Shown here: one piece after another, positions 2,679 to 3,263 of the stretch
Layout: each line of letters begins with the position of its first letter
Numbering within the stretch: position 1 is the first letter of the stretch
Program-made: the position numbers and the translations under genes
The notes under the pieces: generated by a model
Told to the model about the DNA's origin: nothing
Seen by the model: only the letters and a program-made list of their open reading frames with translations
Database searches by the model: none
DNA from: an uncultured Caldilineaceae bacterium
GTDB taxonomy: Bacteria > Chloroflexota > Anaerolineae > Caldilineales > Caldilineaceae
Length of the DNA: 64,000 nucleotides
Direction of reading: 5' to 3'
Assembly (NCBI GenBank): GCA_951813625.1
Contig: CATOTS010000028.1
Span: 1 to 64,000 of the forward strand

Positions 2679-3263
2679 CTACTCACTATCCAGCGCAATC
2701 AGCTGATCGAGCGCGGCGCGCAGGTCCGCCTCGGGTTGCGCTCCGACGAACTCCTGCACTACATTTCCGTTCCCGTCGAGCAGGATCAGGTGGGGCTGGT
2801 AGCGGAAGCCGAACTGCTGCTCGAAGGGCGCCGAGCCCTGGTCGTCAATGTCCAGATAGATGAACTCAACCTGTCCCCAGTAGTCGATTTCGAGCCTGTG
2901 AACCACAGGCGCAAAGCGGACGCAGATCGGTCACCAGAAGGCGAAAAACTCGATAACCTGGGGATGGCCCTGCCCGAGCACGACGGTCTGCGGGTCTGTG
3001 GCGATCATCTCTTCTCTGAACGCGGGCGGCGGCTCAAGCGCGACTTCGGTCGGCTCCGGTTCCGGCGGCGCCGTCGGTTCCGCGGTGACTGTCGGCTCCT
3101 CGACCGCCGTGGGCGTCGGTTCCGCGGCCGGCTGCTCGGTCGCCTGCGCCGCCTGTTCGCCCCCGGCAGCGGAACCGTCATCGCCAGAGATGGAGCTGCA
3201 GCCCGTAAACGCCAGCGCCAACAAGACGAGCAGAGGGACCAGCTGTCTGTGAAGTTTCGTCAT
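2679..3263 (-). CDS. thioredoxin-fold lipoprotein, candidate selenoprotein read through TGA at 2931-2933 (UxxC motif)
   Basis: ORFs 2931..3263 and 2679..2906 are in the same frame, separated by a single TGA and 8 sense codons. Joined protein: lipobox LAFTGC, then QVIEFFAFW-[TGA]-PICVRFAPVVHRLEIDYWGQVEFIYLDIDD...YQPHLILLDGNGNVVQEFVG. The TGA occupies the first Cys of a thioredoxin CxxC. Confidence 0.75.
2894..2910 (-). promoter_or_regulatory. candidate bacterial SECIS hairpin
   Basis: In mRNA sense GCCUGUG-GUU-CACAGGC: perfect 7-bp stem, 3-nt loop starting with G, 20 nt from UGA to stem and 27 nt from UGA to loop. Confidence 0.6.

What the first reader, a model, noticed from the sequence alone, without database searches (positions are those of the whole stretch)
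2679..3263. Candidate selenoprotein: thioredoxin-fold lipoprotein with in-frame TGA at the first CxxC cysteine (UPIC)
Seen directly: minus-strand ORFs 2931..3263 and 2679..2906 lie in one frame and are interrupted only by TGA at 2931-2933. The joined sequence is ...QVIEFFAFW-[TGA]-PICVRFAPVVHRLEIDYWGQVEFIYLDIDD..., so the TGA falls exactly where thioredoxins carry the first catalytic Cys. Established: bacterial selenoproteins often replace a redox-active Cys in CxxC with Sec, and gene callers split them. A random nonsense mutation would be unlikely to hit this codon and leave the downstream half intact. A sequencing error or a TGC/TGT-to-TGA mutation remains possible.
Basis: partly seen in the sequence, partly recalled or inferred. 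Interest (0 to 1): 0.92.

Follow-up and report, generated by a model that had tools for sequence, protein, structure and literature searches.

The report
Membrane-anchored selenium thioredoxin in Chloroflexota bacteria
A gene that looks broken by a stop codon very probably makes an intact surface-anchored thioredoxin with selenocysteine in its active site, because the same TGA, an RNA hairpin behind it and the selenocysteine machinery recur in dozens of related bacteria; the type of protein is known, this lineage of it appears undescribed.

Summary
The minus-strand ORFs at 3263-2931 and 2906-2679 are one 194-residue frame with a single TGA (2933-2931) at the first position of a thioredoxin [U/C]xxC motif. 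The genome (a Caldilineaceae MAG, Chloroflexota) has tRNA-Sec, selA, selB and a selD that itself carries a TGA at its active site. All nine other same-genus genomes with the gene carry the same TGA. In a scan of GTDB genomes, 71 of 75 readable homologs have TGA there and 4 have Cys. All 71 TGA homologs have a hairpin with a G-U loop start 27 nt after the TGA, as the published bacterial SECIS model requires. Four of its pairs show compensatory changes, and synonymous change is depressed across it; Cys homologs have mostly lost it. The sequence downstream is under purifying selection (dN/dS about 0.10). A pseudogene, a sequencing error and a recoded genome are very unlikely. The protein is a lipoprotein with a confidently predicted thioredoxin fold, most likely an extracytoplasmic thiol-disulfide reductase. 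Sec thioredoxins are known; this Anaerolineae lipoprotein clade matches no curated selenoprotein model and was not found in the papers searched. Selenium incorporation itself is not shown.

The parts
2679..3263 (-). Gene for the selenocysteine-containing thioredoxin-like lipoprotein (194 residues, stop TAG 2681-2679)
2931..2933 (-). TGA codon at residue 111, proposed to be read as selenocysteine; first residue of UPIC
   Evidence: TGA conserved in 71 of 75 readable GTDB homologs and 29 of 30 class homologs examined
2894..2910 (-). bSECIS hairpin GCCUGUG-GUU-CACAGGC (7-bp stem, loop GUU at 2903-2901), 27 nt after the TGA
   Evidence: folded; covariation; loop GU in 71/71 TGA homologs
3198..3263 (-). 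Signal peptide and lipobox (LAFTGC), lipidated Cys22
   Evidence: Cys22 invariant in 29 aligned sequences
2922..2924 (-). Cys114, proposed resolving cysteine of the UxxC motif
   Evidence: invariant in A1 and A3
2793..2795 (-). Pro157, position of the thioredoxin cis-proline, facing the active site
   Evidence: invariant in A1 and A3; thioredoxin fold predicted
1081..2622 (-). Downstream same-strand amidase (PF01425); neighbour kept in all 15 same-lineage loci, functional link unknown

Best explanation
The gene encodes a membrane-anchored extracytoplasmic thioredoxin whose nucleophile is selenocysteine. SelB carrying Sec-tRNA-Sec binds the hairpin 27 nt after UGA 2933-2931 and the ribosome inserts Sec instead of terminating. 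The signal peptide exports the protein and Cys22 is lipidated. The Sec111-x-x-Cys114 pair then reduces disulfides (or other oxidised thiols) on extracytoplasmic proteins and is probably re-reduced by a CcdA/DsbD-type membrane electron carrier. Shown by sequence: the TGA, its conservation, the machinery, the hairpin and its covariation, the selection, the lipobox, the fold prediction. Inferred: actual Sec insertion, export, direction of the redox reaction, partner. The confidence given is for the Sec-decoded thioredoxin-like lipoprotein; for the disulfide-reductase role alone I would say about 0.65.
For: Machinery in the same genome: tRNA-Sec 67.6 bits with anticodon TCA, selB 313 bits, selA 547 bits, selD 331 bits with its own Sec-TGA (ACAGUASK) followed by a hairpin with loop GGUCG. 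Conservation: TGA in all 10 genus genomes, 71/75 named genomes. TGA genomes carry selB in 48/49, against 29/41 of genomes with Cys-only matches (Fisher p 4e-4); the one exception, G201, has tRNA-Sec at 65 bits. Hairpin: 92.6% of cells paired, 4 of 7 pairs with compensatory changes, falling away when partners are slid; meets the loop, stem, G and spacing rules of the bSECIS model in PMC13188914. Mean dS is 0.29 in the 15 codons after the TGA against 0.74 further down and 0.94 upstream. dN/dS 0.13 before and 0.10 after the TGA. TGA is an ordinary stop in the window (19 of 42 long ORFs). Fold: strand-helix-strand-helix-strand-strand-helix at pLDDT above 90, best PDB matches all thioredoxins, with residue 111 just before the first helix of the domain. 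Lipobox in all relatives. A DsbD_TM gene is in the genome.
Against: No peptide, 75Se or ribosome-profiling data. The hairpin in this one sequence alone is only mildly more stable than shuffles (z -1.44), so the RNA evidence rests on the comparison. The helix below the hairpin is weakly supported (62% paired). The redox direction, partner and substrate are not shown; the local neighbours in this genus (amidase, amidohydrolase, oxidoreductase subunits) give no redox clue. Genomes are MAGs.
Confidence: 0.95

Rival explanations
1. Pseudogene or nonsense mutation of a Cys thioredoxin, or a sequencing or assembly error.
For: The gene-caller view is two split ORFs; Cys homologs exist.
Against: Same TGA in dozens of separately assembled genomes, including single-contig ones (G227, G291); purifying selection on both sides; conserved, covarying hairpin.
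Confidence: 0.01
2. TGA is read as another amino acid (Trp or Cys) genome-wide, or by a near-cognate or unusual tRNA, not as Sec.
For: Some database copies carry Trp at this position (FAFWWPTC in P0001, P0024, P0033, P0040), as a gene caller using a TGA=Trp code would write.
Against: TGA ends 19 of 42 long window ORFs; a standard tRNA-Sec and SelA/B/D are present; the TGA column pairs with Cys in relatives; the SECIS hairpin tracks the TGA forms.
Confidence: 0.02
3. It is a selenoprotein but works as an oxidase/isomerase, a peroxide reductase, or a copper-site thiol reductase, not as a general disulfide reductase.
For: In part of the Anaerolineales homologs the gene sits by a TlpA-like redoxin (15 of 49 loci with enough upstream flank), a CopA-type ATPase (10 of 42 with enough downstream flank), a CsoR-type metal sensor and sometimes a CcdA-like protein, which points to thiol reduction linked to copper handling.
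Against: The copper neighbourhood is absent in the window's genus. No DsbA-like helical insertion is seen in the model; the fold is a plain thioredoxin.
Confidence: 0.3

Closest known systems
Sec-containing thioredoxin (Trx, PF00085, UxxC), listed as experimentally verified in PMC13188914 Table 1
   Same: Thioredoxin domain (PF00085) with Sec at the first position of UxxC.
   Different: This one carries a lipoprotein signal and a long Pro/Glu/Thr-rich linker, and is far below the TIGR01068 thioredoxin cut-off (49.4 against 96.8 bits). No direct comparison with the listed reference sequence was made.
NF041057, Rcas_1661 family thioredoxin-like (seleno)lipoprotein (listed as DsbG-like in Table 1 of PMC13188914)
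   Same: Thioredoxin-like selenolipoprotein with UxxC; the locus-tag prefix Rcas suggests Roseiflexus, another Chloroflexota (own knowledge).
   Different: The window protein scores 20.5 bits against a cut-off of 190; the model is longer, 247 positions.
TlpA/ResA/CcmG-type extracytoplasmic thioredoxins
   Same: Anchored extracytoplasmic CxxC reductases, fed by CcdA/DsbD (own knowledge).
   Different: PF08534 is only a secondary match; the best match is classical thioredoxin. Sec replaces the nucleophilic Cys.
Sec-containing SelD (TIGR00476)
   Same: Second TGA-containing gene with a bSECIS-like hairpin in the same genome.
   Different: Unrelated enzyme; already a known selenoprotein.

Membership tests
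Bacterial selenoprotein gene | In-frame TGA aligned with a functional Cys in homologs | tested here: met
   TGA in 71, Cys in 4 of 75 readable GTDB homologs at the same column
Bacterial selenoprotein gene | tRNA-Sec, selA, selB, selD in the genome | tested here: met
Bacterial selenoprotein gene | bSECIS: 3-9 nt loop, 4-16 bp stem, G in the first two loop positions, 16-37 nt from UGA (PMC13188914) | tested here: met
   loop GUU, 7-bp stem, spacing 27 nt; covariation; the model's free-energy rule was not applied
Bacterial selenoprotein gene | Sec physically present in the protein | not testable with these tools
   needs mass spectrometry or 75Se labelling
Thioredoxin superfamily (PF00085) | Domain match above gathering score, CxxC/UxxC, cis-Pro, thioredoxin fold | tested here: met
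   47.1 bits against 23.5; invariant residues 111, 114, P157; AlphaFold2 model and PDB matches
TIGR01068 thioredoxin equivalog | Score of at least 96.8 bits | tested here: not met
   49.4 bits
NF041057 Rcas_1661 family selenolipoprotein | Score of at least 190 bits | tested here: not met
   20.5 bits
NF047660 HUIPC motif thioredoxin-like selenoprotein | Match to the NCBIfam model | tested here: not met
   Not among the NCBIfam matches at E up to 1
Lipoprotein | Signal peptide with lipobox Cys | tested here: met
   LAFTGC; Cys invariant in 29 homologs; by pattern only, no signal-peptide predictor was run

The most novel reading that the evidence does not exclude
An undescribed, ancient clade of surface-anchored seleno-thioredoxins, in which Sec is the common form and Cys arose (or was regained) several times, central to extracytoplasmic thiol chemistry, and in some lineages to copper handling, of Anaerolineae.
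Probability: 0.45. Interest if true: 0.6.

Novelty: new member of a known kind. Interest (0 to 1): 0.5.

Why it matters
It adds a widespread selenoprotein clade in a largely uncultured phylum that is poorly represented in the selenoprotein surveys read here. It implies that extracytoplasmic redox in these bacteria depends on selenium. Gene callers split or mistranslate it, so it is likely misannotated in public genomes. Its Sec/Cys pairs with and without the hairpin are a natural experiment on Sec-to-Cys conversion.

Tried and rejected
Membership in the selenolipoprotein family NF041057 was tested and rejected; the own genome also has no match over its cut-off. A genome-wide TGA reassignment was rejected. 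A read-through scan of the window for other UxxC/CxxU-type TGAs gave 12 frames; none but 2933 was followed up and several lie inside other genes in another frame. The SECIS model searched in 21 genomes finds one strong site per same-genus genome (12 of 13) and so no second gene of this kind there. A search of the phylum found strong (E under 1e-30) matches only inside the window's class. Paper searches for selenoproteins in Chloroflexota/Anaerolineae found no description of this family.

Full report
What is there. On the minus strand, 3263-2679 is one open frame with a single TGA at 2933-2931. The read-through product has 194 residues: a signal peptide with lipobox LAFTGC, a Pro/Glu/Thr-rich linker of about 60 residues, and a thioredoxin domain (PF00085, 2.5e-12) in which the TGA takes the place of the first catalytic Cys (FAFW-U-PIC). 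The best PDB sequence matches are thioredoxins, aligned through the site.

Does the genome make selenocysteine? Yes by gene content. It has one tRNA-Sec over the Rfam cut-off with anticodon TCA, a full-length selB, selA and selD. The selD gene itself has a TGA in the motif ACAG-U-ASK, followed by a 9-bp hairpin with a loop that begins GG. TGA is nevertheless a normal stop in this genome: 19 of 42 non-overlapping long ORFs in the window end in it.

Is the TGA kept? All nine other genomes of the genus that were sampled and matched carry the gene (66-74% identity) with exactly one TGA, at the same codon. In a scan of GTDB genomes the best loci are Caldilineaceae and other Anaerolineae/Chloroflexota MAGs; of 75 loci readable by the motif, 71 have TGA and 4 Cys. 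Genomes with a TGA form carry selB in 48 of 49 cases, against 29 of 41 genomes with Cys-only matches (Fisher p 4e-4; lists transcribed, computed). The exception, a fragmented assembly, has tRNA-Sec at 65 bits. The Cys-only group contains distant thioredoxins, and selB is common in the class (247 of 298), so this test is supportive and not decisive alone.

Is there a SECIS? The 60 nt from the TGA align without gaps in 29 TGA forms. RNAalifold finds one hairpin; four of its six pairs have compensatory changes. With the pairs named beforehand, the upper helix is 92.6% paired, and pairing of the whole structure drops from 81.5% to 18-51% when the partners are slid. One compensatory change swaps Pro for Ser in the protein while the pair is kept (L036, L043). 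The loop begins with G-U in 71 of 71 TGA forms; the four Cys forms have 3, 3, 4 and 5 of six pairs and only one keeps G-U. That one (L082) looks like a recent Sec-to-Cys change with a relic hairpin. The hairpin meets the loop, stem, guanosine and spacing rules of the published bSECIS model (PMC13188914). In the genus, mean dS over the 15 codons after the TGA is 0.29, against 0.74 downstream and 0.94 upstream, as expected if RNA structure constrains silent sites.

Is the second half functional? dN/dS is 0.13 before and 0.10 after the TGA, so translation very probably continues past it.

How it most likely works. AlphaFold2 with 48 sequences (TGA given as Cys) predicts a thioredoxin fold at pLDDT above 90, with residue 111 at the start of the first helix of the domain; Foldseek's best hits are thioredoxins. 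Residues 111, 114 and Pro157 are invariant. With the lipobox, this gives an anchored extracytoplasmic Sec-x-x-Cys reductase. A CcdA/DsbD-type membrane protein, the usual electron source for such proteins (own knowledge), is encoded in the genome. In part of the Anaerolineales loci the gene neighbours a TlpA-like redoxin, a prolipoprotein transferase, a CsoR-type metal sensor, a CopA-type ATPase and sometimes a CcdA-like protein, which suggests a link to copper and thiol handling there. In the window's genus the neighbours are an amidase (15 of 15 loci), an amidohydrolase and 2-oxoacid oxidoreductase genes (the last named from sequence by own knowledge), with no evident redox link. Redox direction and partner are inference.

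What is known. Sec thioredoxins with UxxC are a known kind (PMC1088965, PMC1794560, PMC13188914). The present family matches no NCBIfam selenoprotein model over its cut-off: NF041057, a thioredoxin-like (seleno)lipoprotein, gives 20.5 bits against 190, and NF047660 does not match. Searches for selenoproteins in Chloroflexota/Anaerolineae found no description of it, within open-access papers only. Where database sources name related proteins, most are called thiol-disulfide isomerase/thioredoxin, and four entries carry Trp at this position, as expected from a gene caller using TGA=Trp. I therefore file it as a new member of a known kind.

Tree. On a quick tree of 155 domains, Sec and Cys states need at least 13 changes against 48 for shuffled labels: the states cluster by lineage but have switched repeatedly. 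The tree is unrooted and its sampling favours TGA forms from the pattern scan and Cys forms from the protein database, so the direction is not settled.

Noticed in passing
G000:C18:128253-129248 (L021): selD of the same genome has an in-frame TGA in ACAG-U-ASK followed by a 9-bp hairpin with loop GGUCG: a second selenoprotein (known family).
   Followed up: partly
L082 (Chloroflexi MAG B88T1L10), 6001-6534: Cys form that keeps 5 of 6 hairpin pairs and the GGUUC loop: probably a recent Sec-to-Cys conversion with a relic SECIS.
   Followed up: partly
P0001, P0024, P0033, P0040: Database proteins with Trp at the Sec position, apparently metagenome genes called with a TGA=Trp code; a possible way to find mis-called selenoproteins.
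   Followed up: no
P0014, P0079, P0086: Homologs with Ser at the Sec/Cys position; could be variants without the nucleophile or artefacts.
   Followed up: no
L073, L094, L128 and similar Anaerolineales loci: The seleno-thioredoxin gene sits between a TlpA-like/prolipoprotein transferase pair and CsoR plus CopA-type ATPase genes.
   Followed up: partly
G000:C11:92395-93561: A 733-residue frame with two stretches matching NF041057 below its cut-off, without TGA.
   Followed up: no
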